A stretch of DNA of 64,000 bases from Nonlabens ulvanivorans (GTDB lineage: Bacteria > Bacteroidota > Bacteroidia > Flavobacteriales > Flavobacteriaceae). The stretch's first letter is position 1. Each line of letters opens with the position of its first letter. Positions 973-59,871 of this stretch are shown in pieces. The stretch covers positions 1-64,000 of the forward strand of contig NZ_BBMK01000010.1 in NCBI RefSeq assembly GCF_000755285.1, given 5' to 3'. The notes below the pieces were generated by a model that worked only from the letters and a program-made list of their open reading frames with translations, was not told the origin of the DNA and ran no database searches. A program made the translations under genes and the position numbers.

Positions 973-2148
973 TACAGTGAGAATTTAGTTCCAGCAGTAT
1001 TCATCTTGCGCAATAACGGTGAGCATCTATAACGATCTTCTCGGTATAAATCATACATCGCGTCCAGTTCATTCACGCACCAATCGATTCCTTTTTCGTT
1101 TGCCCAGGCGAGTAATCCTTTTGGATAATTCACACCTTTGGTCATAGCACTATCTATTCCTTGTGCCGTTGCGATGTTTAAAAACAAGGCATCTGCTGCC
1201 TCATTGATAAGCATTATGAGTACTCGATCTTGAATTTCTTTTATAAGTTCAGGAGATTTTACTGGGTCCGCTTTCGCGAAAGCGTGCTCACTATCCACAT
1301 TCACATAATCATAAAAACCTCTTCCAGATTTACGACCTAACCAGCCAGCCTCAACCAATCGTTTTTGAGTCAACGCAGGCTTGTAACGTGGATCAAAGTA
1401 AAAGGCTGCAAAAACAGTCTCCGTCACCACATAATTCACATCGTGACCTATATAATCCATCAATTCAAAAGGCCCCATTTTAAAACCCAATCCTTTCAAT
1501 GCATAGTCTATAGTGCAAAACTCGCCATTCCTTCTTCATAAATACGCAGCGATTCACTGTAAAAAGGTCGCGCCACACGATTTACTATAAAACCAGGCGT
1601 ATCCTTTGCTACAGCAACTACTTTCTTCCAGTTCTCAATGGTGGTAACACAAGTATCTGTGACATTTTGAGACGTTTGTACCGCAGGAATCACCTCAACA
1701 AGTTTCATTAATGGCGCTGGATTAAAGAAGTGGATCCCTATACAACGCTCTGGTTTATTGAGTGATGCTGCAATACTCGCGATACTTAAACTAGAAGTGT
1801 TAGAAGCAATAATACAGTTGTCAGACACGTGAGCTTCTAATTCTTGAAACACCTTTTTCTTTATATCAAGGTTTTCAATAATCGCCTCGATGGTAAGATC
1901 AGAGTCGGTAGATCCTTTACCGTACTAACATAAAAGATATTGGATTGTATGCGAGTTTTCTCAGCAGCATCTATTCTACCTTTCTCAATAAGTCGGTTCA
2001 TTATCTTTTCAAGAGCCGCTTGCGCTTTGTCCAGTTGCGCTTGATTTACATCAAACAGTTTTACTTGACAACCAGCCGTGGCAGCTACTTGAGCAATACC
2101 ACTACCCATGGTTCCTGCTCCTATTACTCCTACTTTATTTATATCCAT
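972..2148 (-). pseudogene. paaH: 3-hydroxyacyl-CoA dehydrogenase (PaaH-like), two frameshifts
   Basis: Three consecutive minus-strand fragments make one gene of about 390 residues. The first holds the Rossmann motif GVIGAGTMGSGIAQ; the second has ASNTSSLSIASIA and GIHFFNPAPLMKLVEVI; the third has the C-terminal dimer domain ([12 protein letters not shown]). The enzyme would oxidise 3-hydroxyadipyl-CoA with NAD late in the phenylacetyl-CoA route, which suits its place at the end of the paa block. Frame is lost near 1914-1918 (KGSTDSDLTIEAIIEN continues one frame away) and near 1513-1516 (expected [12 protein letters not shown]). Each needs one restored base. Both breaks are probably sequence errors, since all three parts remain conserved. 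It carries a palindrome copy encoding AFAKA. Confidence 0.85.
1269..1284. repeat. 16-bp palindrome, perfect copy, in paaH
   Basis: CGCTTTCGCGAAAGCG lies inside the third fragment of the dehydrogenase gene and is read as AFAKA within EHAFAKADP. Confidence 0.95.
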
Positions 2149-2201
2149 AGATTTAATAATTCACCTTTAATTTTTCGCTATTATTAGTTTCTTTTGCTCA
2201 C

Positions 2202-2209
2202 CAAATATA
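2202..2209 (-). promoter_or_regulatory. possible -7 element for the dehydrogenase gene
   Basis: On the minus strand this reads TATATTTG, matching the Bacteroidota TAnnTTTG element, 54 bp before the ATG at 2148. No good TTTG -33 box is visible at the usual distance. ACTAACT-type half sites just upstream resemble the paaE operator arms but do not form a palindrome. Confidence 0.35.
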
Positions 2210-2304
2210 ATAAGTTAGTTAGTGAAGTTATCTAATAAACTCATAAGTCTTGACCGGATACACAATATAAACACGTTGATTATTTGCCCTTACAAATAAA
2301 TTGT

Positions 2305-2336: not shown

Positions 2337-2395
2337 TTTATAAGCTCAAGGCATTAAGTTACTTTTATAACTGGCCAACTAAAAAACATTGTACT

Positions 2396-4051: not shown

Positions 4052-4059
4052 AAACGGTT

Positions 4060-4931: not shown

Positions 4932-4945
4932 CTTTCGCGAAAGCG
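4932..4945. repeat. palindrome copy, 14 of 16 bp, after paaD
   Basis: CTTTCGCGAAAGCG begins three bases beyond the paaD stop codon on the minus strand. The core is perfect; only the outer CG on one side is lost. There is no T-tract, so it is not a normal terminator. Confidence 0.9.
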
Positions 4946-4948
4946 AGA

Positions 4949-5446
4949 TTACTTCAAACACTTAAAATAATCAAATGGCTCTAAGCAAACCTCACACTGG
5001 AACATAGCCTTACAGGCCGTAGAACCAAACTGGCTGACCAACTTGGTGTTTTGTGAACCGCAGTTGGTACATTTCACGAGTTTCTTCTCATTGAGAAGCA
5101 CATCTTTATCTGCTGTTTCTTCTAGTGGAGCGGCGATACCGTATTCTTCTAGCGCTTTACGACCACGCTCGGTAATCCAGTCAGTCGTCCACGGCGGACT
5201 CATAATTAATTGTATGTGAGTTGTGTATCCGTGAACTGCAAATGCTCGCTCTAGATCATCGCCTATAACATCCATCGCCGGACAACCGCTGTAAGTAGGC
5301 GTTAGTTTTATAGTAATCTCTTTTCCTTCAACTATAACTTCTCGGATTACCCCAAGGTCGACCACGTTTAATACAGGTATTTCAGGATCTTTCACAGATT
5401 CTAAAACATCTAATAATTCTTGAGATATGTTATAGTTTTGGATCAT
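4949..5446 (-). CDS. paaD: phenylacetyl-CoA epoxidase accessory protein PaaD
   Basis: 165 residues. The N-terminal MIP18/DUF59 domain (LDVLESVKDPEIPVLNVVDLGVIREV, then TPTYSGCPAMDVI) is the Fe-S assembly type, and the C terminus carries a zinc-ribbon-like set of cysteines (CTNCGSQNTK, CKAMFQCEVC). PaaD helps mature the multicomponent epoxidase formed by PaaABCE. It follows paaC on the same strand after 24 bp. Length and both domains are as expected. Confidence 0.92.
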   Translation of the reverse strand: MIQNYNISQELLDVLESVKDPEIPVLNVVDLGVIREVIVEGKEITIKLTPTYSGCPAMDVIGDDLERAFAVHGYTTHIQLIMSPPWTTDWITERGRKALEEYGIAAPLEETADKDVLLNEKKLVKCTNCGSQNTKLVSQFGSTACKAMFQCEVCLEPFDYFKCLK

Positions 5447-6271: not shown

Positions 6272-6275
6272 ATAA

Positions 6276-8169: not shown

Positions 8170-8185
8170 CGCTTTCGCGAAAGCG
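8170..8185. repeat. 16-bp palindrome, perfect copy, between paaE and paaA
   Basis: Lies 26 bp beyond the paaE stop and about 97 bp before the paaA start. No T-run follows on either strand. Confidence 0.95.
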
Positions 8186-10129: not shown

Positions 10130-11650
10130 TTACAGACTACTCACAAACTCTTCCCAAGCCTGAAACTTCTCTTCATCCATTACTTTTTCCATTTTTACCT
10201 GACCACCTTTTTTCTTATTGTGATCATTCCATTTTGCAAACGTTTCTGGTTGTATTTTATGGACTTGAACACCTTTTAGTGCTTTAGTTCTAGCGACTTT
10301 GTAATTCTTATTGGCTTCTTGTAAGGATAGATCTAGTGCCTCAGCAATTTCTGTTTCTGAAGTTTCTGTTTCTGTACCTAAGTACCATACATGGTAAAAT
10401 TCTCCGTCTATCTTTTTGGCACTAACTGTAAATTCTTTGATGCTTGTATTGAATTTTTCTTGTAATTCTGTTATTGCGGTTTCCATCTTAAGCACAGATA
10501 ACTGGCTACCAACTACGTTTAAGAAAAACTTCGTTCGACCGGTTATTTTAATTTCGGCTTTTTCTACGTCTGTAAATTTTATTGTATCACCTATTAAGTA
10601 ACGCCATGCGCCAGACACAGTTGATATAATTAGAGCATAGTCCACTTGTTCTTCTACCTCAGCCATGGTTAGAACTGGCGCATCATCTGAAATACTACCA
10701 TCTTGTTCTACATATTCTGGTTTAAAAGGAACGAATTCAAAATAAATACCACCATCAGTAATCAATTGCATTGAACTTGTTTCTGGACGTTGTTGACACG
10801 CTATAAAACCTTCACTGGCTAGATACGTATCTACGATCTGCACCGGTTTTGTAAAAAGCTTTTCAAAGATAGAACGATAGGGTTCAAAAGCCACACCACC
10901 AGAAGTATAAACCGACAAATTAGGCCATATTTCATGGATGGAATCTACCTTGTGATAATCCATTACTTTTCTAAGCATCATTTCTAACCACGATGGAATA
11001 CCACTCAACATCCCTATATCCCAATTCTTAGCTTCTTCGGCTATTTTTTGAACGCGCTCGTCCCAGTCGTCTATGGAAGATATTTCTTTTCCAGGTCTGT
11101 AAAATGAATCTAAAAATTCTGGTATGTTACTGGCAGATATTCCACTTATCTCACCTATCGTAAAACCATCTTCTACATTTAAATCTGTAGAACTACCTAA
11201 TGCTAGGACTTCACTCTCAAATACATCGGTAGGTAAATCAAAATTAGTCAACGCGCTTACCTGTCTGGTTCCTGCAGCTTTTATCGCCGCAATCATTTCA
11301 TCTGTGACTGGAATTGTTTTAGATTTTTTACCTGTAGTACCACTTGATCTAGCAAGAAATTTTGGCACACCTGGCCATGTGATATCAGGTTTCCCTTCTT
11401 TCATGCGAGACCACCATTGCTCATCCATTTTATGATAGTCGTAAAATGGTACCGCTTCCGCGAAAGCATGCTCCATATCATCATTTTCTATAATATTACG
11501 GAAGTCATAATAAAGACCAAAAGAGGTATTCTTTGCGGTCTTCAATAAATACTCCAAGACTTTGCGCTGTGCAACCACATGATCTGATGTCGCGGTAATA
11601 CTCTCGTGTAGATTTAATGCTGTCTTAATTATAGGACCTAAAAGTGCCAT
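10130..11650 (-). CDS. GH3 family protein
   Basis: 506 residues of the GH3 auxin-responsive-promoter family, adenylate-forming acyl-amido synthetases. Visible blocks include FLARSSGTTGKKSKTIPVT (ATP-binding loop, near residue 105), VYTSGGVAFEPYRSIFEKL, DTYLASEGFIACQ and YLIGDTIKFTDVEKAEIKITGRTKFFLNVVG. Bacterial members are common in flavobacteria, but their substrates are mostly unknown. A minus-strand TATTTTTG box at 11675-11668 and a 7-bp inverted repeat (TGGTATA/TATACCA, 11650-11669) directly precede the start codon. A decayed palindrome copy sits inside the gene. It is a single gene, not obviously in an operon. Confidence 0.88.
   Translation of the reverse strand: MALLGPIIKTALNLHESITATSDHVVAQRKVLEYLLKTAKNTSFGLYYDFRNIIENDDMEHAFAEAVPFYDYHKMDEQWWSRMKEGKPDITWPGVPKFLARSSGTTGKKSKTIPVTDEMIAAIKAAGTRQVSALTNFDLPTDVFESEVLALGSSTDLNVEDGFTIGEISGISASNIPEFLDSFYRPGKEISSIDDWDERVQKIAEEAKNWDIGMLSGIPSWLEMMLRKVMDYHKVDSIHEIWPNLSVYTSGGVAFEPYRSIFEKLFTKPVQIVDTYLASEGFIACQQRPETSSMQLITDGGIYFEFVPFKPEYVEQDGSISDDAPVLTMAEVEEQVDYALIISTVSGAWRYLIGDTIKFTDVEKAEIKITGRTKFFLNVVGSQLSVLKMETAITELQEKFNTSIKEFTVSAKKIDGEFYHVWYLGTETETSETEIAEALDLSLQEANKNYKVARTKALKGVQVHKIQPETFAKWNDHNKKKGGQVKMEKVMDEEKFQAWEEFVSSL
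11453..11467. repeat. palindrome copy with one core mismatch, in the GH3 gene
   Basis: CGCTTCCGCGAAAGC, one T-to-C change in the core, read as AFAEA within EHAFAEAVPF. Confidence 0.75.
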
Positions 11651-12879: not shown

Positions 12880-13500
12880 TTAAGGAATCAGTATCGCCAC
12901 TGCAATTCCTATAAAAACTACGATCTGCGCCCATTTCATAGCTGGGGGGGCAAACCATTTTGAAGATTTTATGAAACTTGCAGCTTTTCCTGCTAGCAAA
13001 GCAATCGTGTAAAAGGTCAATAAAGAAACGAGCATAAAAACGCCACCTAGCATATAGATTTGAATCCAATCTGGATAAGAGTTTGCGATTACAAACTGTG
13101 GTAATAAAGCTAGAAAGAATAAGGTTACTTTAGGATTTAGCAAATTCATGGTGATGCCGACTTTGTAGAGTTTCCATAGACTTCTATTAGATGCTTTTTC
13201 AGCTCCAAATTCAATACTCGCATCTGATTTGAAAATTTTAAACGCCAGATAAAGCAAGTAAATGGCTCCAGCTATTTTTATAGCATATAACAACCACTCG
13301 TTATCTCTTATGACAATGGCAAAACCAAATGCAACTACAGATGTATGAACTATGCAACCTGTAATCAATCCACTAGCAATGGCAATTCCATATTTAGAAC
13401 CACGAGCTACCGATTGTGTAAGGACAAAAATATTATCTGGTCCTGGAGAAATGGCAAGTAGTAAGGTTGCAAATGCAAAAGATACCAGTGACTCTATCAC
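12880..13500 (-). CDS. LysE family translocator
   Basis: 206 residues, an inner-membrane amino-acid/metabolite exporter of the LysE/RhtB family with about six membrane spans. Diagnostic are the N-terminal [29 protein letters not shown] and the [23 protein letters not shown] segment. The start codon overlaps the pyrD stop by four bases, so the genes are coupled. A seven-C tract (12944-12950 on the plus strand) near the C terminus encodes FAPPAM and may include one extra proline relative to the true sequence. The substrate is unknown. Confidence 0.88.
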
Positions 13501-14543
13501 AATCCTCGAGCAACTATAGCATCATTAATATCTTTAATCAACTTAGGTCCTTCATAAACAAAACCAGTGTACAACTGCACTAGACTAGCTCCAGCATTTA
13601 GTTTATCAATGGCATCTTGTGCGGACATGATGCCACCTACTCCTATGATTGGGAAAGCACCGTTGCTTTTTTGATGCAAAAAGGCAATTACTTCTGTGGC
13701 TCTTTGAGTAAGTGGCGCACCACTCAATCCGCCAGCTTGTTTTACTAGACTTTCTTCTGATTGCAATCCTTCTCTAGAAATGGTTGTATTACTAGATATG
13801 ACTCCATCAATTTGAGTATCTTCTACTATTCCTATGATATCTAGTAACTGATCGTCAGTCAAATCTGGAGCAATTTTAAGAAGTATAGGCTTTCTGTTAG
13901 CCTTCTTATTATTTAAGTCTTGAAGTGTTTGAAGTATGTGCGTTAAAGGCTTTCTATCTTGAAGTTCGCGCAATCCTGGTGTGTTAGGAGAACTAACATT
14001 TACAGTAAAATAGTCAACGTGATCAAATAATTTTTCAAAACAGATGATATAATCGTTTACCGCATCCTCATTAGGTGTGAGTTTGTTCTTCCCAATATTT
14101 CCACCTATCAAGACGTGATGAGGTTTCCCTAATTTAGGATTCTTTTTCAATCGTTCTACAGCAGCATCTACTCCACCGTTATTAAATCCCATTCTGTTTA
14201 CAATCGCTTGGTCTTTCTTTAATCTGAACAATCGTTGCTTAGGATTTCCATCTTGCGGCTTTGGTGTCAGCGTTCCTATTTCTATAAATCCAAAACCAAG
14301 ATTTGAAAATTCTTTAAATGCTTTAGCATCTTTATCAAATCCAGCTGCCATTCCTACTGGATTCTCAAACTGTAAACCAAAGAGTTCTCTTTTTAAAGCA
14401 GGATGATTTTGCTTGTAACGCTTTCGCGAAAGCGCACTAAAACCAGGCACTTTGCTCAATAATTTGATGCTTTTAAAAGAAAAATGATGAACTGCCTCTG
14501 GATCAAAGGAGAAAAGTAACGGTCGTACTATAGATTTATACAT
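13497..14543 (-). CDS. pyrD: quinone-dependent dihydroorotate dehydrogenase (class 2)
   Basis: 348 residues. It oxidises dihydroorotate to orotate in pyrimidine synthesis, using FMN and membrane quinone. Class 2 features: the N-terminal membrane-associating extension ([23 protein letters not shown]), [15 protein letters not shown], and the catalytic serine in [19 protein letters not shown] prefer the ATG at 14543; a TTG 18 bp upstream would add MHNLIL. The gene carries a palindrome copy encoding LSRKR in the N-terminal region, where sequence is poorly conserved. It is divergent from lpd. Confidence 0.93.
14419..14434. repeat. 16-bp palindrome, perfect copy, in pyrD
   Basis: Read on the minus strand in the frame that gives ALSRKRYK, different from the AFAKA frame used in most genes. 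Confidence 0.95.
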
Positions 14544-14562
14544 AAGAATAAGGTTGTGCAAA

Positions 14563-20057: not shown

Positions 20058-20073
20058 CGCTTTCGCGAAAGCG
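20058..20073. repeat. 16-bp palindrome, perfect copy, upstream of aroQ
   Basis: Intergenic, 57 bp past the stop of the barrel gene at 20131 and 22 bp before the aroQ start on the same strand. Confidence 0.95.
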
Positions 20074-22542: not shown

Positions 22543-22557
22543 CGCTTTCGCGAAAGC
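22543..22557. repeat. palindrome copy, 15 of 16 bp, after xerD
   Basis: Intergenic copy with a perfect core, 47 bp after the xerD stop and 25 bp before the aldo/keto reductase start. Confidence 0.92.
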
Positions 22558-25439: not shown

Positions 25440-25600
25440 AAACCTGCACAAGTTGGGTTTTGAATGAACTCCTTAAATAAAGTTTAAGGTTAACTGGTTG
25501 ATCAAGGATCCGGCTCATAGGTCCGGCTTGCTTTTACAACCACGACTCACCTTTTTTAAAGAATTACGTGTTGAGTTCACCAAAAAATGAAACAAGTCAG
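25440..25600 (-). ncRNA. ssrS: probable 6S RNA
   Basis: The gap between zapA and rny is GC-richer than its surroundings and folds well. On the minus strand TGAACTC near the 5' side pairs with GAGTTCA near the 3' side, CAACACG pairs with CGTGGTTG, there are GCCGGACC and GAGCCGGATCC segments in the centre, and a CCTTAAA/TTTAAGG hairpin. It ends near an AAACC/GGTTT stem with a T-run at 25436-25442. 6S RNA is commonly found just downstream of zapA, including in flavobacteria, which is the main reason for the name. Ends are approximate. Confidence 0.5.
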
Positions 25601-37985: not shown

Positions 37986-38104
37986 AAGTTGTTTTTTATC
38001 TAAGTCGCAATTTACAAAAAGAGCTGTCCAAGACATGAAGCTATAGCTTAAATTTTATAGAAATTATGAGCTACACCTCAGTCTATTCTCTTAAATTTGG
38101 ACTC

Positions 38105-43295: not shown

Positions 43296-43718
43296 TTAAT
43301 TAAAAGGACTTTTCTTGTCCATAAATGTTTGCAATATGATAGTAGCTGCTATTTCATCTACTAGCGCCTTATTTCTACGTTTAGACTTACTTAATCCACT
43401 ATCTATCATGGTTTGAAATGCCATTTTTGAAGTAAACCGTTCATCCACTCTTTCAATAATTATATGAGGATATTTTTCTTGTAACGCTTTCGCGAAAGCG
43501 TGAATAACACCACCCAACTCACTATCTGTATAGTCCATCTGTTTAGGCTCACCTATGACAATGGTATCGACAGCTTCAGTACTTAAATACTTTTCTATAA
43601 AGGCTGATAACTCGTGTGTGGCAACTGTGGTAAGACCAGATGCTATGATTTGCATAGGATCTGTTACCGCAATGCCAGTTCGCTTTTTACCATAATCTAT
43701 TGCCAGTATTCTACTCAT
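43296..43718 (-). CDS. ruvX: Holliday junction resolvase RuvX (YqgF)
   Basis: 140 residues: ILAIDYGKKRTGIAVTD (RNase H-like first acidic residue), VIGEPKQMDYTDSELG, and VDERFTSKMAF. It is implicated in rRNA maturation and recombination. A palindrome copy encodes HAFAKAL in the surface helix between the second and third motifs, at a place that tolerates variation. Confidence 0.92.
   Translation of the reverse strand: MSRILAIDYGKKRTGIAVTDPMQIIASGLTTVATHELSAFIEKYLSTEAVDTIVIGEPKQMDYTDSELGGVIHAFAKALQEKYPHIIIERVDERFTSKMAFQTMIDSGLSKSKRRNKALVDEIAATIILQTFMDKKSPFN
43485..43500. repeat. 16-bp palindrome, perfect copy, in ruvX
   Basis: Encodes AFAKA in VIHAFAKALQE, fitting an amphipathic helix. Confidence 0.95.
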
Positions 43719-44638: not shown

Positions 44639-45702
44639 TGAATATACTGCTCATTCAATATAAAATGATAGGTGATGTACTGACCAGTACCATCATCGCA
44701 GAGCAGTTAAAAATCATTTATCCAGACGCTCAAATTCATTATCTTATTTCTAAAACAGCTCTTGCTGTTGTAGAAGGTAACACAGCTATTGATAAATTTA
44801 TCTGTGTAAATAACAATGAGTTTGATAGCTGGAGAGGTATTATCATGCTTGCGCGAAAGCTCAAAAAAAATAACTATTCTATTTCCATTGATGCCTATGG
44901 GAAAAATAACAGCGCATTACTATCTAGACTAGTAGGCGCTGTTCAAAGAATAGGATATAAAAAGTGGTTTGCACCATGGACTTATACAACTGCTATCAAA
45001 AATAGTCCTGATCCTGCAATTTATAAAACAGGATTATCCCTAGGTAGTCGTATGCTACTTACAACACCATTGACAAATGAAGTAAAATGGAATTTACTAC
45101 CTAAAATCTATCTTACCGATACTGAAAAGCTGGATGGCAAAAAATGGTTGTCAGAAAACGGACTTGATTTGAACTTACCTATCACTATGGTGAGTGCTTT
45201 AGGATCCAGTGTAGACAAAACCTTACCATTAACTTTTATGGCACAGGTGGTAGACCAAATGGTTAAAATAACCAGTAGCCAGATACTATTCAATTATTTA
45301 CCGGCGCAAAAGGAACAAGCGTATAAAATTTACAATGCCTGTCTTCCTGAAACGCAAAAACATATTTTTATAGACGCAATTACTCCTAGTTTACGTGACT
45401 ATCTAAAAGTTCTTCACCACTGTACTACCGTAATAGGTAATGAAGGTGGCGCTATCAATATGGGTAAGGCACTGGATATACCTAGTTTTGCTATTTTCAG
45501 CCCATGGATCAATAAGCGATCATGGAATGCTGGCGAAGATGGTAAAAAACACATTTCTGTTCATCTTAAGGATGTTAAACCAGAACTGTACGGTACTAAA
45601 AAAGCAAGTGCTTTTAAAAAACAAGCGCAAGAACTATATCAAGATTTCAGGCCAGAGTTGATTTTTGAAGAACTGAACAAGTTTGTGGATGGGAATTATT
45701 AG
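44638..45702 (+). CDS. glycosyltransferase family 9 protein
   Basis: 354 residues, GT-B fold of the heptosyltransferase type. N-terminal MNILLIQYKMIGDVLTSTIIAEQLK, then the acceptor/nucleotide part with VSALGSSVDKTLPLTFMAQVVDQM and the C-terminal TVIGNEGGAINMGKALDIPSFAIFSPW (ADP-heptose-binding-like). It probably adds a sugar to the lipid A-core. GTG start overlapping dapD. A decayed palindrome (44847-44860) encodes LARKLK. The sugar donor is unknown. Confidence 0.88.
   Translation: MNILLIQYKMIGDVLTSTIIAEQLKIIYPDAQIHYLISKTALAVVEGNTAIDKFICVNNNEFDSWRGIIMLARKLKKNNYSISIDAYGKNNSALLSRLVGAVQRIGYKKWFAPWTYTTAIKNSPDPAIYKTGLSLGSRMLLTTPLTNEVKWNLLPKIYLTDTEKLDGKKWLSENGLDLNLPITMVSALGSSVDKTLPLTFMAQVVDQMVKITSSQILFNYLPAQKEQAYKIYNACLPETQKHIFIDAITPSLRDYLKVLHHCTTVIGNEGGAINMGKALDIPSFAIFSPWINKRSWNAGEDGKKHISVHLKDVKPELYGTKKASAFKKQAQELYQDFRPELIFEELNKFVDGNY
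44847..44860. repeat. palindrome copy with one core mismatch, in the GT9 gene
   Basis: GCTTGCGCGAAAGC, one T-to-G change in the core and loss of the outer bases. Confidence 0.6.
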
Positions 45703-48263: not shown

Positions 48264-49031
48264 CTATTTGTTTCCTTTAAAAATAGATTTAAACTTTTTT
48301 TTCAAACGCTTCTTCCGATGAAAAGCCTCTTGAAAGTCCTGTGTGTACTTCCACATTTGTGAGATGGTTTCCTCAGGACGCTTTCGCGAAAGCGTAGCAT
48401 ATTCTAGCCCCCCCATTACGTCATACATCCATTTATGAGGTGACAGTCTTTCAAAATTTTTAAGACGGTCATCCCACGGAATGTCATAAAACTTCATGCG
48501 GTTCAAATCGACCAAAGCAAATTCATAATGATCACCTACCTTAGTGATTAAGGTGTTTCCTGGTGAATTATCTAGGAAGTAAACACCGGACTCGTGCATA
48601 TGATAAATAAATCTAGTGAACTCTTTTAAAATTTGTTCTTTATCTTCTATCGAATCGTCATTAATAAGCTCTCGATAGGTAAAATCGCAATTTAATTGCT
48701 TTGAAATATAGAAACTAGTACCAAAATTAAACAAGGATTTTTGTTCTAGATAAGCGATAGGATCTGGTGTACCTATTCCTTTTTCCATAAGGATTGTAGC
48801 ATACTCAAAAGAACGTTGTGCTTTTGATTTTCTAAAAAATTTATATACTATTTTATTAATAGCATTAGGCTTTCTAAATCTCTTAAAATTAAGAGATTCA
48901 CCATCTACATCAATTACTTTTACCACATTACGCCCGTCATGTAATGACCTTCCTATCTGGTCAAAACGAGTAATCACGCCTTCTATAGAAGGTCTTAAAA
49001 ATTGATATGAGTCTTGATAAACACTTTTCAT
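48264..49031 (-). CDS. lipopolysaccharide kinase InaA/Kdo kinase-like protein
   Basis: 255 residues with a protein-kinase-like fold: a Lys-containing VKVIDVDGESLNFKRF, a catalytic loop HMHESGVYFLDNSPGNTLI (HxDxxxxN-like, with Asn-Thr) and a VDLNRMKF (DFG-like Asp). Similar to WaaP/KdkA kinases that phosphorylate sugars of the LPS inner core. A seven-C tract at 48408-48414 gives YDVMGGLEYA (four would give one Gly). A palindrome copy encodes TLSRKR near the C terminus. Its neighbours are all glycosyltransferases, which supports the role. Confidence 0.82.
   Translation of the reverse strand: MKSVYQDSYQFLRPSIEGVITRFDQIGRSLHDGRNVVKVIDVDGESLNFKRFRKPNAINKIVYKFFRKSKAQRSFEYATILMEKGIGTPDPIAYLEQKSLFNFGTSFYISKQLNCDFTYRELINDDSIEDKEQILKEFTRFIYHMHESGVYFLDNSPGNTLITKVGDHYEFALVDLNRMKFYDIPWDDRLKNFERLSPHKWMYDVMGGLEYATLSRKRPEETISQMWKYTQDFQEAFHRKKRLKKKFKSIFKGNK
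48379..48394. repeat. 16-bp palindrome, perfect copy, in the kinase gene
   Basis: Read as TLSRKRPEE, the same frame as in pyrD. Confidence 0.95.
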
Positions 49032-52071: not shown

Positions 52072-53508
52072 ATGGAGCAACTGCTATTTAAAGATGCAAT
52101 CTCACATCCAGTATTTAAAACCATTAGTGAAGCTGCTGCATCATTAGGTGTTGACGCCTATGTGATTGGTGGATTTGTGAGAGACTATTTTCTCAAACGT
52201 GGTGCAAAACAAGATATAGACATCGTCGCAGTAGGCAGCGGTATTGAACTAGCTCAAAAAGTAGCAGAATTGTTACCGCAAAGCACTAAAGTATCTGTCT
52301 TTAAAACCTACGGTACTGCCATGGTAAAGACAGATGATTTTGAACTTGAATTTGTAGGTGCTCGCAAGGAAAGTTACACTAGAGATAGTCGCAATCCGAT
52401 TGTAGAAGATGGCACTCTAGAAGATGATCAAAACCGTAGAGACTTTACCATTAACGCTATGGCGTTCTCATTAAACCCAGATAACTATGGGGAATTAATA
52501 GACCCTTTTAACGGTATGGTAGATCTTGAAAAAAAGATTATTAAAACCCCCATTAGAACCAGACGTCACCTATAGTGATGACCCATTGCGCATGATGCGA
52601 GCCATTAGATTTGCTGCTCAATTAAACTTTAGGATTAACGATGATTCATTTCATAGTATAAAGAATAATGCAAGCCGCATTAAAATTATCACTAATGAAC
52701 GCATCATCACAGAATTAAATAAAATTATGATGTGTGATGAACCATCACATGGCTTTATTTTATTAGAAAAGACAGGCCTCTTGCCTACTTTTTACCAGAA
52801 CTTACAGCCCTTAAAGGTATTGAAGAAGTAGAAGGTCAAAAGCATAAAGATAACTTTTACCACACACTAGAAGTAGTCGATAACATCTCTCGCAATACAG
52901 ACAACTTATGGCTGCGATGGGCTGCTTTATTACATGATATAGGTAAGGCACCGACAAAGAAATTTAGTAAAAAAGTAGGATGGACCTTCCATGGTCACGA
53001 ATTTAAAGGTGCAAAGATGGTATATCATCTTTTCAAACGTTTGAAAATGCCCCCCCTTAACGATAAGATGAAATTTGTGCAATTAATGGTGCGCATGTCT
53101 TCTAGACCTATCGCCGTTATTGATGAGAGTGCTACAGATAGCGCTGTGCGCAGACTAGTGCATGACGCAGGCGACTACATTGAAGATTTAATGATATTGT
53201 GCGAGGCAGATATCACTACTAAAAACCCATACCGCTTTAAGAAATATCATAACAATTTTAAGAAAGTAAGGGATAAAATTGTAGAAGTTGAAGAACGTGA
53301 TCATGTGCGCAACTTTCAGCCACCAGTAAGTGGAGAAGAGATAATGAAAGCTTTTAACTTACAACCATGTCGCGAGATTGGTATGATTAAAAGCGCTATT
53401 AAAAACTCCATCCTCGATGGCGATATCCCAAATGAACATGATGCAGCCTATGCTTTTATGATTGAAAAAGGTATAAAACTAGGCCTTACACAAGTAGAAG
53501 AACTTTAA
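52072..53508 (+). pseudogene. cca: CCA tRNA nucleotidyltransferase, two frameshifts
   Basis: About 478 residues in three pieces. The first has VIGGFVRDYFLKRGAKQDIDIVAVGSG (nucleotidyltransferase, DxD) and RRDFTINAMAF; the second DPLRMMRAIRFAAQ; the third the HD region (WAALLHDIGKAPTKKFSKKVGWTFHGHE) and a helical C terminus. It adds CCA to tRNA ends. Frame 1 breaks at a five-C run, 52547-52551 (four give KTPLEPDVTYSDDPLRMMRAIRFA, the family sequence). Frame 2 breaks near 52783 (one base missing, giving LLAYFLPELTALKGIEEVE). A seven-C tract at 53050-53056 adds a Pro. An essential gene with three defects points to sequence error. Confidence 0.9.
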
Positions 53509-53515: not shown

Positions 53516-53530
53516 GCTTTCGCGAAAGCG
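53516..53530. repeat. palindrome copy, 15 of 16 bp, after cca
   Basis: Begins 7 bp after the cca stop codon; no T-tract. Confidence 0.92.
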
Positions 53531-53619
53531 AAATATCATTATTAATGTGCAAATATCTTAGTCATTACAGCGCTTATTTTATAACTCCATAAACTGAAAA
53601 TGAAGTTTCAGCAATCGGA

Positions 53620-53651
53620 TTGAATAAAAACACTTGAAAATATTAGTTTTA
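53620..53651 (+). promoter_or_regulatory. possible promoter of the propeller histidine kinase gene
   Basis: TTGA (53620-53623), 20 bp, TAGTTTTA (53644-53651); one mismatch in each box, about 20 bp ahead of the TTG start. Confidence 0.4.
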
Positions 53652-53671
53652 CCATAACCTAAAAACCAATA

Positions 53672-56612
53672 TTGAGAGTTTTTATCTGCTTTTATTTTCT
53701 ACTGTGTAACTTAATCACGGCACAGCAACCGGTTTCCATACACTTAACAGAGCAAGATGGATTACCCGACAAAGAATTCTATGGAATTGCTGAAGACAGT
53801 AAGGGATTTATATGGATCGCCGGCAATAAAGGTTTAACCAGATTTGATGGTAAAAACTATAAAACGTATTCACATCCAAAAAAACGTGGGCTTTCCGTTT
53901 TTGAAATTAATGTGGATCAACAAGATCGTATCTGGTGTATAAATATTTCTGGCCAAATTTTTTATGTAGAAAATGATGAATTAATACTTTTTAAGGATTT
54001 AAAAAAAGATCTAACGGAATGTTACCCGAACTGGCCATCTATGATCACCAACTGGTGATAAGCTGTCATCTATTTGTTAAGGTATATGATTTGAAATCTG
54101 GATTAGAATATTCTGAGTTTGAAAAGAATGAAAACGAGATAATCTTAAATCCCTTTATTATAGATCATAAAGTTGTGTTTACTTTTAAAAATGATCTTTA
54201 TACTTTAGAAAATAACAAGCCAGTATTATGGGAAAAACTACCTAAAAACCTCACCGCTTTTAAAAATAAGCGAGGAATCAAAGAAATCGTAGGTTACTTA
54301 GGAAATAATAGAACGCTCTTTATTTATCAAAATAATTTAAAAGAGACATTCATAGAATTATTAGATAACGGAATATGGAAAAAACCATCAACATCTCATA
54401 AATTAAATGAGGTGAGAATAACTCAAATTAAAAAAATAGAAAATGATATATGGATTTGTACCTCAAAAGGGGTTTTTATAATGCACTTGGATAATCGTGA
54501 TGAACTGATTTATAAAAAAACCATACTAAATGATATTTTCACGTCAGACATTATAAAAGATCGTGATGATAATTACTGGGTAACAACCACATCTCATGGG
54601 ATATTTGTATTTCCTAATATCCATATAGAAAAGGTTGATCTTCCAGAAAAAACAGGAGATTCCAAAGTCCTAGAATCAAACGCAAATCAAACTCTATATA
54701 TAGGTACATCAACAGGAGCTGCGTTTCAGTTCAACTCTAGTACTAAATCATTAGAGAAATTAAACATAGAAGGTGATAGATCAGTAAGTGAAATTATTTA
54801 TGACCCTTATAGAGATCAAAAGACATTTCTACAAGATATAGTAGTCACCACACTCAATGCAAAGAACGAGCCTGTTGAAAAATCATTGGACTACGGTACC
54901 GTAAAAAGGGCTTTGTTTATATCTGCCGACAGTCTTCTGGTAGTGAGCTCAAACAAGGCCGCTGTTGTTGATTTTAAATCAATAGAAGTAGAAATGAAAA
55001 AATTTAAAATCAATTATCCTAAAAGGGGGGCTACACTTGTTTCTACGATTCCATAAGTGGAGACCGCTATTTTGCTCTAGTCGACGAGTTGATTAAAGTT
55101 TCTAAAGACGGAGATTCAAATATTTTATTAAAAAATAACGGTGATAACATATTAACAGGATCGATAGACATGGATTCTAGAAACCATTTATGGATCGGCA
55201 CTTATAATGAAGGACTTTATGAGTTCTATAATGATCAAATGATTAAAAAGTGGTCCACAGAAAATGGCTTGCTATCTAATAACATTAATAAAATTAAAGT
55301 AGATACCAATTTTTTATGGATTACAACAGATCAAGGAATCCAGCGATTATGCTTAAAAACAAATACTTTTAAAAACCTGACTAAACAAGATGGGATTCCA
55401 TCCTACTCTATTAATGATATAGAAGTATTGAATGAAAAAGTGTTTTTTGCAAGTAACTCAGGCGTTTTCTGTATCGATAAAGAATTTACTTTTAAAAACT
55501 TTAAACCTATTGAAATCTATTTTACCGACGTTGAGATAAACTACAAAAAAGCAGAACTAAAATCTCAATATTTTTTAAAACAAGATGAGAGTCAATTTCA
55601 GGTCAGCTTTAATTCAAATGGCTTACGAGCTATGACCAGTGGCAATTATGAGTACCGACTTCATGGTCTTTTTAATGAATGGAACAGTATCCCTACAGGA
55701 AGTAACAATATCATATTCCCATCTATCCCACAAGGTAGATACACCTTACAATTACGTGCAGTAGATACCGATGGAACAACCAGTGATCTAGAAGAAATTA
55801 GAATTCAAGTAACCATTCCTTTTTATAAAAAGAACTGGTTTTGGATTATAGTCATGTCTATTTTAATTGCTGGTTTAGTTATCTACTATAGGTGGCAATT
55901 ACGCTTTCGCGAAAGCGAGAAAAACAAACAACTTCTTTCTCTACAAAAGGAGAAGGAAATGATAAATCTTAAATTAGAAAACCTACGCTCGCAGATGAAT
56001 CCGCATTTTGTATTTAATGCATTGAATTCTATCCAAGAATACATCATGAAAAATCAGCGAGTACAGGCAGGAGATTATTTGGGGGGGAAATTTGCCGATT
56101 TAATAAGAACTTATCTCGATCATAGTGTTAAAGGTCGCATCACAGTTCAAGAAGAAATAGACAGTTTAAACATGTATCTAGAGTTAGAACAACTGCGTTT
56201 TGAAGAACGATTGCAATATGAAATAAAGATAGATATAGAACAAAATCCAGATCATTTCTTTATTCCTACCATGTTAATCCAACCTTATGTAGAGAATGCC
56301 CTTAAACATGGACTGCTACATATAGAAGGAGAACGATTACTTAACGTTACATTCTCACTAGATGCGGCACAACATCTTATTATTTGTACTGTTGATGACA
56401 ATGGAATAGGTCGAGAAAAGGCAAGAGAGATACAGGCCAAAAGATTAAGACATCACAAATCGTTTGCCACAAAAGCTACTGATGATCGCATTTCTTTACT
56501 CAATTATGTACTGGAAAAAGAAGCCAGTATAGAAATTACCGATAAGCACAATGGCACTCAAGCTACAGGAACACTAGTAACCATTAAGATACCATATACC
56601 ACAGAAGGATGA
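53672..56612 (+). pseudogene. propeller-type sensor histidine kinase, two frameshifts
   Basis: About 980 residues of a periplasmic-sensor kinase in three fragments. A signal peptide (MRVFICFYFLLCNLITAQ), many two-component-regulator propeller repeats (GLPDKEFYGIAEDSKGFIWIAGNKGLTRFDG), a Y_Y_Y domain (NEYRLHGLFNEWNSIPTGSNNIIFPSIPQGRYTLQLRAVD), one membrane span (WFWIIVMSILIAGLVIYY), and a LytS-type kinase (NPHFVFNALNSIQEYI, HATPase with DNGIGREKA). Frames are lost at about 54016 and at a six-G run, 55025-55030 (four give KRGYTCFYDSISG). A seven-G tract at 56081-56087 gives YLGGKFADLIR where the family has one residue fewer. Stop overlaps the regulator start. Confidence 0.88.
55902..55917. repeat. 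16-bp palindrome, perfect copy, in the kinase gene
   Basis: Read as RFRESE just after the membrane span, the third reading frame used by this repeat. Confidence 0.95.
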
Positions 56613-57358
56613 AAGCACTGATCATAGATGATGAGCCTAAGGCAAGAGAAGTACTTAAAATATTACTGGAAGATCACTGCCCAGAAGTACACACTATTAT
56701 AACAGCACCAAATTTACTTCAAGGTGTTGAGCTTATAAAAAATGAATCACCTGATCTCGTATTTTTAGATATAGAGATGCCGAGACATAGTGGTCTAGAA
56801 ATCACAGAATTTATAGATAAAAATCATTTTAACTTTGAAATCATTTTCACAACTGCCTACAGTGATTATGCTATACAAGCATTTCAATTAAATGCGATAG
56901 ATTATTTATTGAAACCACTAAGCCCAGAGAAATTAAAACAGGCCCTTAAAAAAGTGATTGAATTAAGAGGTAAAACACAACTTACTGAACGACTTCTAGA
57001 ATTAAAAAACAGCTTTAAGGAAGCTAATTTTTCTAAAATTGCACTTCCCTATTCTGATGGAATAAAATTTGTTGAATTTGATAATATCATCGCTATAAAA
57101 GCAGATGGGATGTATACAGAATTTCATATCATCGGAAAAGAAAAAATAATAGTAAGTAAACCACTCAAACACTTTACAGATATACTCGACAGCTTAAAAA
57201 CATTTTATAAACCACACCGCTCTTACCTCATCAATTTGAGACATATTAAAGAATACGTGCGTAAAGATGGTGGTTATATCCTTATGGAAAACGATATTGA
57301 CGTATTGATATCTAAAGATAAAAGAGAAGAATTTTTAACAATAGTACAGAGTATATAG
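56609..57358 (+). CDS. LytTR family response regulator
   Basis: 249 residues: a receiver domain (KALIIDDEPKAREVLKILLEDHCPEV, phosphorylation Asp in VFLDIEMPRHSG, KPLSPEKLKQAL) and a C-terminal LytTR DNA-binding domain (IALPYSDGIKFVEFDNIIAIKADGMYTEFHIIG, FYKPHRSYLINLRHIKEYVRKDGGYILMEND). Its ATG overlaps the kinase stop by four bases, so they are a cognate pair. The adhesin-like gene downstream on the same strand is a possible target. Confidence 0.93.
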   Translation: MKALIIDDEPKAREVLKILLEDHCPEVHTIITAPNLLQGVELIKNESPDLVFLDIEMPRHSGLEITEFIDKNHFNFEIIFTTAYSDYAIQAFQLNAIDYLLKPLSPEKLKQALKKVIELRGKTQLTERLLELKNSFKEANFSKIALPYSDGIKFVEFDNIIAIKADGMYTEFHIIGKEKIIVSKPLKHFTDILDSLKTFYKPHRSYLINLRHIKEYVRKDGGYILMENDIDVLISKDKREEFLTIVQSI

Positions 57359-57642
57359 TTAGGTAAAATATAATACCTATTATGGCATTAAGAGTATTAA
57401 CTTAAATTCAAAATAGAGAATAATTGTACAACAAAATTAATTCTCAACGGTAGATTCTATATCATAAAAATTCATTGTTAACATACTTCAAAGGTAATTT
57501 CATAACAATTTTGTATATATCGTCTTTAACTCAATAAGTTGAATAAAACCTTTATAAGTTGAGAATGTACTTTCATAAGTTCTTATAAAAATCAGTATTC
57601 CTCTTACCGCACTTTTGTGGTTGTAAACTAATTAATACAATC

Positions 57643-59871
57643 ATGAAAAAAACATTACCTTTTTTAATTATCGCTTTTCTATTTTCATTAGGCGCTAATG
57701 CTCAATTACCTGCAGGCGCACTTTACGACTTCACATTTACTAATGGAAGTCTAGTTAATCAAGCATCACCTGGAACTGCAGATCTTACCGATAACAATCA
57801 GAGCGCCCAACTAGTTGCAGATCGCACAGGAAGTTCAAATGATGCTTACAGAATGAATACCGATAACTTTATAAATACCCGACAAGGTAATACTAGTGAT
57901 CAAAAAGAAGTAAGTATAAGTTTCTGGATGAGAGCAAACGATTCTGACATAACCGCTACACTTACCCAGTTACTTTTAATAGATAGCCCTAATGGATATT
58001 TTAATATTAGAATCGATAACAGCGTTCCTGCCGATGGAAAAAAATTATCATTCTATTCTAGAGGCAGCACTACTAGTGGCGATCGTTTTGCTAGTGGAAG
58101 AAAAAGCATTCCTTCTTTGCTAGATGGCCAGTGGCATCACATTGGTATTACTACTGCGGTAACAGGAAGTACTATAAATTTCACAACCTATGTAGATGGA
58201 GTCGAAGAAACTAACTTTCAACAATTTGCACTTAGCAACCCTAATTCAGGAAGCGCGCCGTTGTTTTTATCAGATCCTAGAATGGTTGTAGCACCACAAG
58301 GTGGTTTCCCTGGTTCTATAGACGATATCAAATATTATCAACGCACTTTAACAAGTGCTGAGGTTACAGCACTTGCAAACGACAACGCGCCTCCAACTAT
58401 AGGAAGTGAAGTCTATGTTAATACCAGTGCAACTGGAACAGGTACAGGAGCAGACTGGACAAATGCATATACTAATCTAAGATTAGCACTAGACAACCAC
58501 CCAGGGAAAGATTTTTGGGTAGCCGCTGGAACTTATACCATCGCTGATGGAACTATAGCTGGTAAATCTTCATCCTTTATAATAACAGATAATACAAATG
58601 TATACGGAGGTTTTAACGGCACAGAATCGCTACTCGCTGACCGTGATCCTGTTGCAAACGAAACCATTATTACTGGTGACCAATCTAATGACGATATTGC
58701 TACTGGCTTGAATGAATCCTCAACAGATCGCAGCGATAATATTTACACCGTTATTAAAGTAGCCGGCGATAACATCACTATAGATGGAATAACGATTACA
58801 GGTGGTCATGCAAACGGCACAATAGGTGATGACAGAAGTGGTTCTGCTATTAAGGTGACGCCAGGAAACGGTAATGGTCTTCTTGTTACAAATTGCACAT
58901 TCAAGTCTAATTTCTCCTTAGCTGCTGGTGCATTTCACGTGCCGCTTACCGGTAGTAGTGCTACCATGATTATAGACCGCTGTGTATTTACAAAAAATGT
59001 AGCGCAACTGGCGCCGGTAATTTATGGCTCCATACAAACGTCAAATATCACTTTAGACCTTACACTAAGCAATAGCTTAATTTATGATAACAGTACCATA
59101 GACGTATCCACAGGAAGTCAAACTGGGAATATGATTTGGTTTAGAAGCGATATAGGTTTAGGACAGTTCGATGGAACCATTACAAACAACACCATAACTG
59201 GAAATTCAACAAATCAACCAAGTTCGTCAAATAGAGGTGTTTTGTGGCTTACGCGTATTCAGGGTTTTTCTAACATTGATGTCACTAACAACATTATCGT
59301 AGGGAATACAAATGGAGCCATGAACCTACAGGCAATTGCAGTTCCTTCAGGAAATTTCAACTATCCTAATGATACACGTTTAATTAATAATCTCACGAGC
59401 TCAAGCATTCAATCCTCAGGATCTTTTTTGCTATTTAATAATATAACCGGTACTGCAATGTTCAACGACGCAGCGAACAATGATTTCACGTTAGCCGCTA
59501 GCTCTCAAGCAATCAACGCTGGAGATAACAATGAGGTGCCCGCAACAAATTTATACGACTTATTAGGCAATGACCGCATTGCTAATACAACCGTAGACAT
59601 GGGTGCATACGAGTTCGGAGCAACCGCAGGAATTGAAGAAAACAGCAAACTAGATTTCAGTCTCTATCCTAATCCTGCGATTGATATGATCACCGTTGCT
59701 ATTGACCATAACGCTTTCGCGAAAGCTAACATCTACAACCTACAAGGTCAATTAATAGCCTCATCGCAAGAGTCAAGCATTCAAATATCTGATTTAACAG
59801 CTGGAATGTATATTATTAAGATAGAAACTACAAATGGAACAACAGCCACACAGCAGTTTATTAAAAAATAA
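57643..59871 (+). CDS. LamG and right-handed parallel beta-helix protein with T9SS sorting domain
   Basis: 742 residues, surface-exposed. Signal peptide (MKKTLPFLIIAFLFSLGANAQ); a LamG/concanavalin-type domain (about residues 40-240, SFWMRANDSDITATL, GQWHHIGITTAVTG, SIDDIKYYQRTLTSAEVTALAND); a right-handed parallel beta-helix of the choice-of-anchor Q type (VAGDNITIDGITITGGHANG, NLLDVTNNIIVGN repeats); and a type A T9SS C-terminal domain (FSLYPNPAIDMITVAIDHNAFAKANIYNLQGQLIASS). Probably adhesin or carbohydrate-binding. A palindrome copy is in the sorting domain. Confidence 0.88.
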   Translation: MKKTLPFLIIAFLFSLGANAQLPAGALYDFTFTNGSLVNQASPGTADLTDNNQSAQLVADRTGSSNDAYRMNTDNFINTRQGNTSDQKEVSISFWMRANDSDITATLTQLLLIDSPNGYFNIRIDNSVPADGKKLSFYSRGSTTSGDRFASGRKSIPSLLDGQWHHIGITTAVTGSTINFTTYVDGVEETNFQQFALSNPNSGSAPLFLSDPRMVVAPQGGFPGSIDDIKYYQRTLTSAEVTALANDNAPPTIGSEVYVNTSATGTGTGADWTNAYTNLRLALDNHPGKDFWVAAGTYTIADGTIAGKSSSFIITDNTNVYGGFNGTESLLADRDPVANETIITGDQSNDDIATGLNESSTDRSDNIYTVIKVAGDNITIDGITITGGHANGTIGDDRSGSAIKVTPGNGNGLLVTNCTFKSNFSLAAGAFHVPLTGSSATMIIDRCVFTKNVAQLAPVIYGSIQTSNITLDLTLSNSLIYDNSTIDVSTGSQTGNMIWFRSDIGLGQFDGTITNNTITGNSTNQPSSSNRGVLWLTRIQGFSNIDVTNNIIVGNTNGAMNLQAIAVPSGNFNYPNDTRLINNLTSSSIQSSGSFLLFNNITGTAMFNDAANNDFTLAASSQAINAGDNNEVPATNLYDLLGNDRIANTTVDMGAYEFGATAGIEENSKLDFSLYPNPAIDMITVAIDHNAFAKANIYNLQGQLIASSQESSIQISDLTAGMYIIKIETTNGTTATQQFIKK
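59712..59726. repeat. palindrome copy, 15 of 16 bp, in the T9SS adhesin gene
   Basis: Encodes AFAKA in HNAFAKANIYN, within the conserved sorting domain. Confidence 0.92.

What the first reader, a model, noticed from the sequence alone, without database searches (positions are those of the whole stretch)
1269..59726. A 16-bp palindrome, CGCTTTCGCGAAAGCG, recurs about every 4.6 kb
Seen directly: the 12-bp core CTTTCGCGAAAG is perfect at 14 places (1271, 4932, 8172, 14421, 20060, 22545, 28808, 30568, 33160, 43487, 48381, 53518, 55904, 59714) and once mutated at 3 more (11453, 38689, 44847). At this GC content a 12-mer of that composition should occur well under 0.01 times in 64 kb. No adjacent sequence is shared, so it is not a mobile element. 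Known parallels are HIP1 of cyanobacteria, DNA-uptake sequences and methyltransferase or nucleoid-protein sites, none of which I can identify here. It may be a genome-wide signal in this lineage.
Basis: partly seen in the sequence, partly recalled or inferred. Interest (0 to 1): 0.8.

Follow-up and report, generated by a model that had tools for sequence, protein, structure and literature searches.

The report
Genome-wide palindrome in Nonlabens bacteria
Marine bacteria of the genus Nonlabens carry one exact 14-letter DNA palindrome hundreds of times, regularly spaced and kept almost unchanged between species even inside genes, which points to an undescribed DNA-reading system, perhaps one that recognises the cell's own DNA.

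Summary
CTTTCGCGAAAG occurs 14 times in the window and 503 times in its genome; the reversed control occurs 0 times. All 23 genomes held of the genus (Nonlabens) carry 297-879 copies. In a 397-genome family sample only two other genera, sisters on an RpoB tree, reach hundreds (445, 917). The unit is GCTTTCGCGAAAGC, usually CG-extended, in a weak symmetric T-rich, C-poor frame. Copies avoid each other and are about six times denser between genes in Nonlabens, yet over half lie in genes, mostly read as AFAKA. Between species at 74% DNA identity, 20 of 22 alignable sites are unchanged (nearby 12-mers: 6%). Synonymous shuffling gives 0.8 copies against 55. It is a selected or driven DNA recognition site. 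Its reader is unknown. Two methyltransferase families are missing from 7 and 8 of 18 motif-rich genomes, pilus-type ATPases from 16 of 18; ComEC is universal. Best guess: an uptake-signal-like 'self' motif (about 0.4); main rival: chromosome-organising sites. Some phage records carry it too. The paper searches made here found no description. New variant of a known kind of iterated genomic signal.

The parts
1271..1282. exact core, full 16-bp palindrome, inside gene 972-1499 (-) (3HCDH domain)
   Evidence: exact in G399 and G404, not alignable in G414
4932..4943 (.). exact core (left extension TA, so not the 14-mer), intergenic, 3' of the PaaD-like gene 4949-5446 (-)
   Evidence: exact in G399
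8172..8183 (.). exact core, 16-bp palindrome, intergenic
   Evidence: exact in G414 and G404
11455..11466 (.). one-mismatch copy CTTCCGCGAAAG in the GH3-like gene 10130-11650
   Evidence: exact in the G414 and G404 orthologues, same mismatch in G399
14421..14432 (.). exact core, 16-bp palindrome, in the dihydroorotate dehydrogenase gene 13497-14561 (-), read as LSRKR
   Evidence: exact in G414, G399, G404
20060..20071 (.). exact core, 16-bp palindrome, intergenic upstream of a type II dehydroquinase gene
   Evidence: exact in G414, G399, G404
22545..22556 (.). exact core, intergenic between 21599-22495 and 22583-23530
   Evidence: exact in G404, one mismatch in G414 and G399; exact in L022, L023, L025, absent in L021
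28808..28819 (.). exact core, 16-bp palindrome, in the TonB-dependent receptor-like gene 28060-30546 (+), read as AFAKA
   Evidence: exact in G414 and G404, one mismatch in G399; exact in L020, L022, L023, L024, L025, absent in L021
30568..30579 (.). exact core, 16-bp palindrome, between convergent genes
   Evidence: exact in G414, G399, G404 and L021
33160..33171 (.). exact core in the Smr-domain gene 32702-33286 (-)
   Evidence: one mismatch (A to G, position 8 counted from 0) in G414, G399, G404; exact in L021 and L025
38691..38702 (.). one-mismatch copy CTTTCGCGGAAG in gene 38066-39526
43487..43498 (.). exact core, 16-bp palindrome, in the RuvX-family gene 43296-43718 (-)
   Evidence: exact in G414, G399, G404
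44848..44859 (.). one-mismatch copy CTTGCGCGAAAG in the glycosyltransferase-9 gene 44638-45702
48381..48392 (.). exact core, 16-bp palindrome, in the Kdo/WaaP-kinase-like gene 48264-49031 (-)
   Evidence: exact in G399 and G404, one mismatch in G414
53517..53528 (.). exact core, intergenic, just 3' of gene 53017-53508 and at the left edge of a segment absent from this place in three relatives
   Evidence: exact in G414, G399, G404
55904..55915 (.). exact core, 16-bp palindrome, in the histidine-kinase gene 55089-56612, inside that segment
59714..59725 (.). exact core in gene 57643-59871 (T9SS sorting-tail protein), inside that segment

Best explanation
Shown: GCTTTCGCGAAAGC is a genome-wide DNA element, repeated hundreds of times, kept sharp, kept apart from its own copies and retained at fixed places between diverged species, against amino-acid and codon pressure. 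Inferred: a sequence-specific protein, probably a symmetric dimer with weaker contacts out to about 20 bp from the dyad, reads it, and DNA that carries it at least every few kilobases gains something. My most likely specific role is an uptake-signal-like 'self' motif: the competence system of these bacteria prefers DNA carrying the site, transformation with such DNA restores decayed sites, and one site per few-kb fragment suffices, so close pairs bring nothing. The receptor would have to be of a new kind, not a type IV pilin. The confidence below is for this specific role; for the general statement (a selected or driven DNA recognition site) it is about 0.93.
For: Genus-wide and lineage-bound: 23 of 23 genus genomes, 3 of 237 genera in the family sample above 21 copies, 1 of 395 genomes above 6 copies of the 14-mer in the phylum sample. 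Spacing: the first 99 gaps in G190 with none under 1319 bp, 42 gaps in G000 with none under 1760 bp; even spacing is reported for uptake sequences (passages of PMC1939737). Spacer density 5.7 times gene density, with 113 of 189 Nonlabens sites in genes; the same paper gives 65% of H. influenzae uptake sequences in genes with excess outside genes. Preferred frame AFAKA, 75 of 113 genic Nonlabens sites. Sharpness: one-mismatch to exact copies 62 to 879 in G400, 88 to 759 in G402. Retention 20 of 22 at 73.6% identity. ComEC in 35 of 35 genomes, including all 23 motif-rich ones in that call. A 20-kb piece with an NRPS cluster has no site.
Against: Known uptake sequences are not palindromes (passages), and the known or predicted receptors are type IV minor pilins (abstract and passages), whereas a PF00437 secretion/pilus ATPase passes its cut-off in only 2 of 18 motif-rich genomes. 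ComEC is equally present in motif-poor genomes, so it does not discriminate. Ten of 50 virus records hold 3-8 spread sites, three of seven of these examined with temperate hallmarks, which a direct advantage inside the cell would explain at least as well. No paper in the library held both Nonlabens and 'natural competence'. One-mismatch copies are less rare in G000 (135 to 503), G206 (304 to 917) and G190 (248 to 445). In G190 spacer excess is only 1.8-fold. No receptor was identified.
Confidence: 0.4

Rival explanations
1. Chromosome-organising sites: a lineage-specific dimeric DNA-binding protein binds the palindrome every few kilobases to shape, tether or segregate the nucleoid; prophages that stay in the chromosome come to carry it too.
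For: Perfect dyad and a symmetric weak footprint; regular spacing; no placement trend in 20 evenly spaced 20-kb samples of G400 (0-7 sites each); near-invariance of the 14-mer within otherwise fast-changing spacers; ten virus records with 3-8 spread sites, three of seven examined with temperate hallmarks.
Against: No such protein was identified. Gaps up to 22 kb and a 20-kb piece without a site are tolerated. I know of no chromosome organiser with 500-900 sites of 14 bp (recalled).
Confidence: 0.3
2. Recombination or nuclease-licence signal (Chi-like): the site stops or redirects a DNA-degrading machine so that self DNA is recombined and foreign DNA destroyed.
For: Copy spacing of the order of Chi in E. 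coli (recalled); sites in virus records; C-poor, T/G-rich 5' flanks.
Against: Known Chi sites are short and polar (recalled), while this one is a 14-16 bp palindrome; it is abundant in only 3 of 237 genera of the family sample. AddAB/RecBCD genes were not tested.
Confidence: 0.1
3. HIP1-like motif tied to a DNA methyltransferase and mismatch repair.
For: A GC-rich-centred palindrome iterated in genes and spacers, like HIP1 and the alternate HIPs (PMC4390886 abstract and sections 2.6 and 3.1).
Against: No match to the C5 methylase family PF00145 in 7 of 18 motif-rich genomes nor to PF01555 in 8 of 18; G405 and G406 lack both and carry 776 and 577 copies. The inner TCGCGA outside the motif is at 108 against 92.7 expected. 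Copies number about 120-260 per Mb against the 1000-2000 per Mb given for HIPs. Other methyltransferase families were not tested.
Confidence: 0.07
4. Not a special signal: codon bias, protein motif, RNA hairpin/terminator, mobile element or contamination.
For: An isolated RNA copy can fold into a 6-bp hairpin; over half of the sites lie in genes.
Against: Synonymous shuffles give 0.8 against 55; three reading frames are used; intergenic sites are not concentrated in convergent spacers (5 of 34 in G400); hairpin z-score -0.79; no flanking identity; present in 23 of 23 genomes.
Confidence: 0.02

Closest known systems
DNA uptake sequences (DUS of Neisseriaceae, USS of Pasteurellaceae)
   Same: Hundreds of copies, lineage-bound, enriched between genes yet often inside genes, evenly spaced, big drop at one mismatch (passages); USS has AT-rich flanks (recalled)
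   Different: This motif is a perfect palindrome, is 14-16 bp long, occurs in Bacteroidota of which 16 of 18 tested lack a pilus-type ATPase over cut-off, and also lies in some phage records; preferential uptake is untested
HIP1 and alternate HIPs of cyanobacteria
   Same: Iterated palindrome in genes and spacers, lineage-bound, function unknown
   Different: Longer, roughly 4-16 times rarer per Mb, no universal member in the two methyltransferase families tested, its inner 6-mer not enriched alone; in the Nonlabens samples deviations fall most often at core position 3 rather than at the ends
Chi (crossover hotspot instigator)
   Same: Kilobase spacing across the whole chromosome
   Different: Chi is short and polar (recalled); this is a long palindrome abundant in only three sampled genera
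parS / Noc / matS sites
   Same: Palindromic sites for chromosome-handling proteins; TTTC/GAAA half-sites recall parS and Noc sites (recalled)
   Different: Those are few and placed near origin or terminus (recalled); here 300-900 copies without a placement trend in the G400 samples; ParB paralogues were not tested
REP/BIME or other dispersed intergenic repeats
   Same: Palindromic, dispersed, denser between genes
   Different: No longer repeat unit around the core, and more than half of the copies are in genes

Membership tests
DUS/USS | strong genome-wide over-representation with a sharp consensus | tested here: met
   503 against 0 for the reversed control; 62-135 one-mismatch copies to 503-879 exact in three Nonlabens genomes, but 248 to 445 in G190
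DUS/USS | even spacing and excess outside genes | tested here: met
DUS/USS | non-palindromic consensus | tested here: not met
   perfect palindrome; for known uptake sequences see passages of PMC1939737
DUS/USS | type IV pilus machinery with a minor-pilin receptor | tested here: not met
   PF00437 over cut-off in 2 of 18 motif-rich genomes; receptor literature: abstract and passages of PMC12616744
DUS/USS | inner-membrane competence channel ComEC | tested here: met
   35 of 35 genomes, motif-rich and motif-poor alike
DUS/USS | preferential uptake of DNA carrying the motif | not testable with these tools
   needs a wet assay
HIP1/HIP | iterated palindrome in genes and spacers | tested here: met
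HIP1/HIP | a methyltransferase specific for the sequence in the motif-rich genomes | tested here: inconclusive
   no universal PF00145 or PF01555 member; other methyltransferase families not searched
HIP1/HIP | about 1000-2000 copies per Mb | tested here: not met
   about 120-260 per Mb from the counts and rounded sizes; HIP range from PMC4390886 section 3.1
Chi | polar sequence with strand bias to replication | tested here: not met
   palindrome, so no polarity is possible in the core
Chi | attenuates RecBCD/AddAB | not testable with these tools
   biochemical
restriction site | avoidance of the recognised sequence in the genome | tested here: not met
   the motif is enriched and TCGCGA outside it is at 108 against 92.7 expected
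mobile element | shared sequence beyond the core | tested here: not met
   flanks show only weak base preferences
parS/Noc | clustering near the origin, ParB-family reader | tested here: inconclusive
   no positional trend in 20 evenly spaced 20-kb samples of G400; ParB paralogues not searched

The most novel reading that the evidence does not exclude
A new kind of genome-wide self-DNA code in Bacteroidota: a 14-bp palindrome inside a weak symmetric frame, read by an unknown dimeric protein that needs neither a pilus nor (so far as tested) a methyltransferase. It is kept every few kilobases by selection strong enough to rewrite proteins, and it also marks some phages of such hosts. The motif-rich genera form two patches on the RpoB tree, so it was gained twice, or gained once and lost; one gene loop (dihydroorotate dehydrogenase) holds the motif in different reading frames in the two lineages.
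Probability: 0.45. Interest if true: 0.9.

Novelty: new variant of a known kind. Interest (0 to 1): 0.77.

Why it matters
Few genome-wide iterated DNA signals have a known reader; HIP1, described in 1995, has no settled one that I know of. Here the signal is long, exact, palindromic and present in a cultured genus beside family members that lack it, so its reader can be sought by affinity capture or by comparing gene content. If it is an uptake signal, it implies a DNA receptor that is not a type IV pilin. If it organises the chromosome, it would be a nucleoid code with hundreds of exact addresses. It also marks DNA origin: small clusters in other genera flag an efflux island that probably came from a motif-rich donor, and motif density in virus records may point to their hosts.

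Tried and rejected
Codon or protein effect: rejected by synonymous shuffles and by the use of three reading frames. The spectrum of one-mismatch copies is not that of synonymous drift: core position 3 (counted from 0, mirror included), which is non-synonymous in the main frame, is hit most in Nonlabens (7 of 12; 9 of 21 in the G405/G397/G410/G402 stretches) and in G190 (4 of 5), though not in G206 (0 of 6) nor in G400 alone (1 of 5); position 1, a third-codon place in the main frame, was never hit, while position 4, also a third-codon place, was hit in 7 of 21.

RNA hairpin or terminator: the hairpin is no better than shuffles for the isolated motif, and spacers of all orientations hold sites. 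Rejected as the general explanation.

Restriction-site logic: TCGCGA outside the motif is not avoided.

Methyltransferase: two families lack universal members. Other families were not searched.

Recombination breakpoints at motifs: 2-3 of 10-22 breakpoints in three window comparisons lie within 40 bp of a site (0.33-0.75 expected), but these are largely the same two places counted thrice, and other pairs give 1 of 12 twice (expected 0.78 and 0.85), 4 of 30 (2.02) and 2 of 30 (2.48). Dropped.

Other iterated palindromes: one 20-kb stretch from each of 18 other family genomes showed nothing comparable; the strongest was ATGATATCAT, 3 copies in L263 against 0.038 expected, not followed up. A rarer signal would be missed.

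Origin/terminus bias: no trend in 20 samples of G400.

Literature: searches for the 10-mer as letters, Nonlabens with palindromes, over-represented palindromes with flavobacteria, highly iterated palindromes, HIP1 spacing, uptake signals, Nonlabens with natural competence and a mixed query listed no paper that by its title, abstract start or the passages I read describes this motif. The library holds open-licence papers only, and most listed papers were not opened. PMC5217627 was read in passages only and does not mention Nonlabens or flavobacteria. Two papers that I looked for by DOI are not held.
Full report
CHECK. The window holds 14 exact copies of CTTTCGCGAAAG and 3 copies with one mismatch; dinucleotide shuffles give 0.17. 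The 16-bp form is complete at 9 of the 14 exact sites and the 14-mer GCTTTCGCGAAAGC at 13 of 14. The genome (3.09 Mb in 25 contigs, 87% complete) holds 503 exact copies; the same letters read backwards occur 0 times.

WHOSE GENOME. Of the eight best-matching named records for a dihydroorotate dehydrogenase of the window, seven are called Nonlabens and one Flavobacteria bacterium BBFL7. Contig lengths tie two handles to names: N. ulvanivorans PLR (720,589 bp, G414) and BBFL7 (692,184 bp, G404). The 3,914,632-bp contig of G400 is, from memory, N. dokdonensis DSW-6, and the 2,952,962-bp contig of G087 is, from memory, Croceibacter atlanticus. G190 and G206 remain unnamed.

DISTRIBUTION. All 23 genomes held of the genus carry 297 to 879 copies (the lowest is a 78% complete genome); the control is 0-1. 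In an even sample of 397 genomes of the family, hundreds of copies occur only in the genus (4 of 4 sampled) and in G190 (445) and G206 (917); every other genome has 0 to 21. In 395 genomes across the phylum, the 14-mer exceeds 6 copies only in the window's own genome. An RpoB tree of 29 genomes (the window's own was left out because its RpoB match is in two pieces) puts four Nonlabens in one clade (100/100) and G206 with G190 as sisters (97/89), with motif-poor G144 (13 copies) just outside them (100/99). The label needs two changes on the tree, two gains or a gain and a loss; the backbone is unresolved.

ANATOMY. In 571.7 kb of Nonlabens DNA (G400 samples, the window, G404 stretches, and 15 loci fetched because they hold a site, which favours exact copies) there are 128 exact 12-mers, 124 with the G..C extension, 101 complete 16-mers and 12 one-mismatch copies. 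Whole genomes, without that bias: one-mismatch copies number 135 (503 exact) in G000, 62 (879) in G400, 88 (759) in G402, 304 (917) in G206 and 248 (445) in G190, with controls of 13-25; in motif-poor G144 and G329 they are 45 and 41 against controls of 19 and 13. Sharpness therefore differs between lineages. Around intergenic Nonlabens sites (76 sites) the 5' flank prefers T at -4, -5, -8, -11, -13 and -14 and A at -6 and avoids C, mirrored on the other side; in the two other genera together (106 sites, genic and intergenic) T leads more weakly at -4, -5, -8, -11 and -14, but -13 does not follow and -3 prefers A. In spacers the flanks themselves turn over: at 75-80% identity they match at 0.69 for 3-8 bp from the core, against 0.94 at 1-2 bp and 0.81 at 41-60 bp; in genes the near flank does slightly better than the far one (0.88 against 0.79). 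The firm element is 14-16 bp and the frame is a preference.

WHERE THE SITES LIE. In 764 kb of Nonlabens (G400, G405, G410, G402 and the window; G397 and the window's three close relatives left out as near-copies; only sites with 60 bp on each side), 113 sites are in genes and 76 between them, a density ratio of 5.7. For G206 it is 33 and 27 (8.0), for G190 39 and 7 (1.8); these two sets are not random samples and each includes a 10-kb stretch chosen for a close pair. Gene frames are 75 AFAKA, 24 LSRKR, 14 RFRES in Nonlabens (a simple longest-ORF caller of my own). In coding DNA of G400 and the window AFAKA occurs 36 times against 0.13 expected, RFRES 8 against 0.04, LSRKR 9 against 0.08, so the DNA motif has rewritten proteins. 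Dihydroorotate dehydrogenase shows it: Nonlabens enzymes read LSRKR in a loop where other genera mostly have other residues, and G190 has the motif in the same loop in another frame, AFAKA. Of 30 rpoB loci, all 7 from motif-rich genomes have a site next to rpoB and none of the 23 others has one: it lies 32-44 bp after the frame in G000, G400, G402, G412 and G206, and just upstream in G406 and G190.

SPACING. The first 99 gaps of G190 have CV 0.67 and none is under 1319 bp; the first 49 gaps of G206 have CV 0.72 and one gap below a quarter of the mean (10.7 expected); 42 gaps on six contigs of G000 have CV 0.48 and none under 1760 bp; the G400 samples have 1 pair under 1 kb against 15.8 expected. 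The tool lists only the first places of each genome, so these are not whole chromosomes; among later places listed for G190 one pair is 623 bp apart. Other close pairs exist (109-799 bp), one of about 650 bp shared by four genomes.

RETENTION. Counting only sites aligned in both: G405 to G397 27 of 27 exact, the reverse 27 of 28; G405 to G410 (79% identity) 21 of 24, the reverse 21 of 25; G405 to G402 (73.6%) 20 of 22, the reverse 20 of 24; G410 to G402 20 of 24; window to G414 7 of 10, G399 9 of 12, G404 10 of 11. Nearby 12-mers are exact in 59-60% (G405/G397), 10-11% (G405/G410), 6-7% (pairs with G402) and 16-40% (window pairs). One to eight sites per comparison could not be aligned. In eight loci of other species, six hold sites: that at 28808 is exact in five and absent in one; two loci of 6.4 kb hold none.

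PHAGES AND ISLANDS. Each record was chosen for having at least one match, so density is biased upward. Proteins of seven of the ten were searched: three look temperate (G810 with a CI-like repressor and transposition proteins, G802 with a Mu-type portal protein, G794 with a tyrosine integrase); the other four gave no sign either way. In several motif-poor genomes the few copies cluster; five share a pair 933 bp apart (G215, G087, G078, G101, G160), and in G078 the cluster covers an AcrB-type pump and an outer-membrane efflux protein, which suggests transfer from a motif-rich donor. A 20-kb sample of G400 without a site is an NRPS cluster.

READER. Of 18 motif-rich genomes, 2 have a PF00437 ATPase over its cut-off, 11 have a C5 methylase match and 10 a PF01555 match; G405 and G406 have neither methylase family. 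ComEC is present in 35 of 35 genomes, rich or poor. No candidate reader was found; all 12 genome searches are used.

READING. The element is a DNA recognition site under selection or drive. Even spacing, sharpness, spacer excess with many genic copies and lineage-bound occurrence are the profile of uptake sequences (passages of PMC1939737). The palindrome, the scarcity of pilus ATPases and the phage copies speak for a reader inside the cell. I put 0.4 on an uptake-like self signal, 0.3 on chromosome organisation, 0.1 on a Chi-like licence, 0.07 on a HIP-like methylation link, and leave the rest open.

LITERATURE SEEN. PMC4390886: outline, abstract, passages and sections 2.6 and 3.1. PMC1939737: passages. 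PMC12616744: abstract and passages. PMC5217627: passages. Others: search listings only.

Noticed in passing
window 25466-25576 (-): 6S-Flavo RNA above the Rfam gathering score, which first pointed to a flavobacterium.
   Followed up: no
window 53534-59996: A 6.4-kb segment absent from this place in three close relatives begins right after the motif at 53517 and ends beside what looks like a half motif (AAAGCGAAACACAATTG); it holds two sites itself.
   Followed up: partly
L040, L042, L043, L045; G160:C1:311231-312177: Five motif-poor genomes of five genera share two sites 933 bp apart; in L043 they lie in an outer-membrane efflux gene beside an AcrB-type pump. Probably a transferred island from a motif-rich donor.
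   Followed up: partly
virus records behind L168, L192, L155, L135, L164, L172, L204, L205, L206, L181: Ten virus records with 3-8 spread sites; some share the same gaps between sites (8011 or 4480 bp), so some are related phages. The motif may serve to assign hosts.
   Followed up: partly
G405, G206 and G190 stretches: Another palindromic spacer repeat, with CTGCCGGCAG / GCAGGCAGG; in G405 it lies at two places where a relative (G402, G410) has the motif.
   Followed up: no
G000:C25:1081391-1085178: rpoB of the window's own genome is matched in two overlapping pieces, which looks like a frameshift and may be an assembly error.
   Followed up: no
window 32351-32409: A 58-bp stretch inside a gene has second matches at other places in several Nonlabens genomes at 72-90% identity.
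   Followed up: no
G144, G329, G042: Motif-poor genomes with a modest excess of one-mismatch copies over control (45 to 19, 41 to 13, 38 to 11): decayed former sites or transferred DNA.
   Followed up: no
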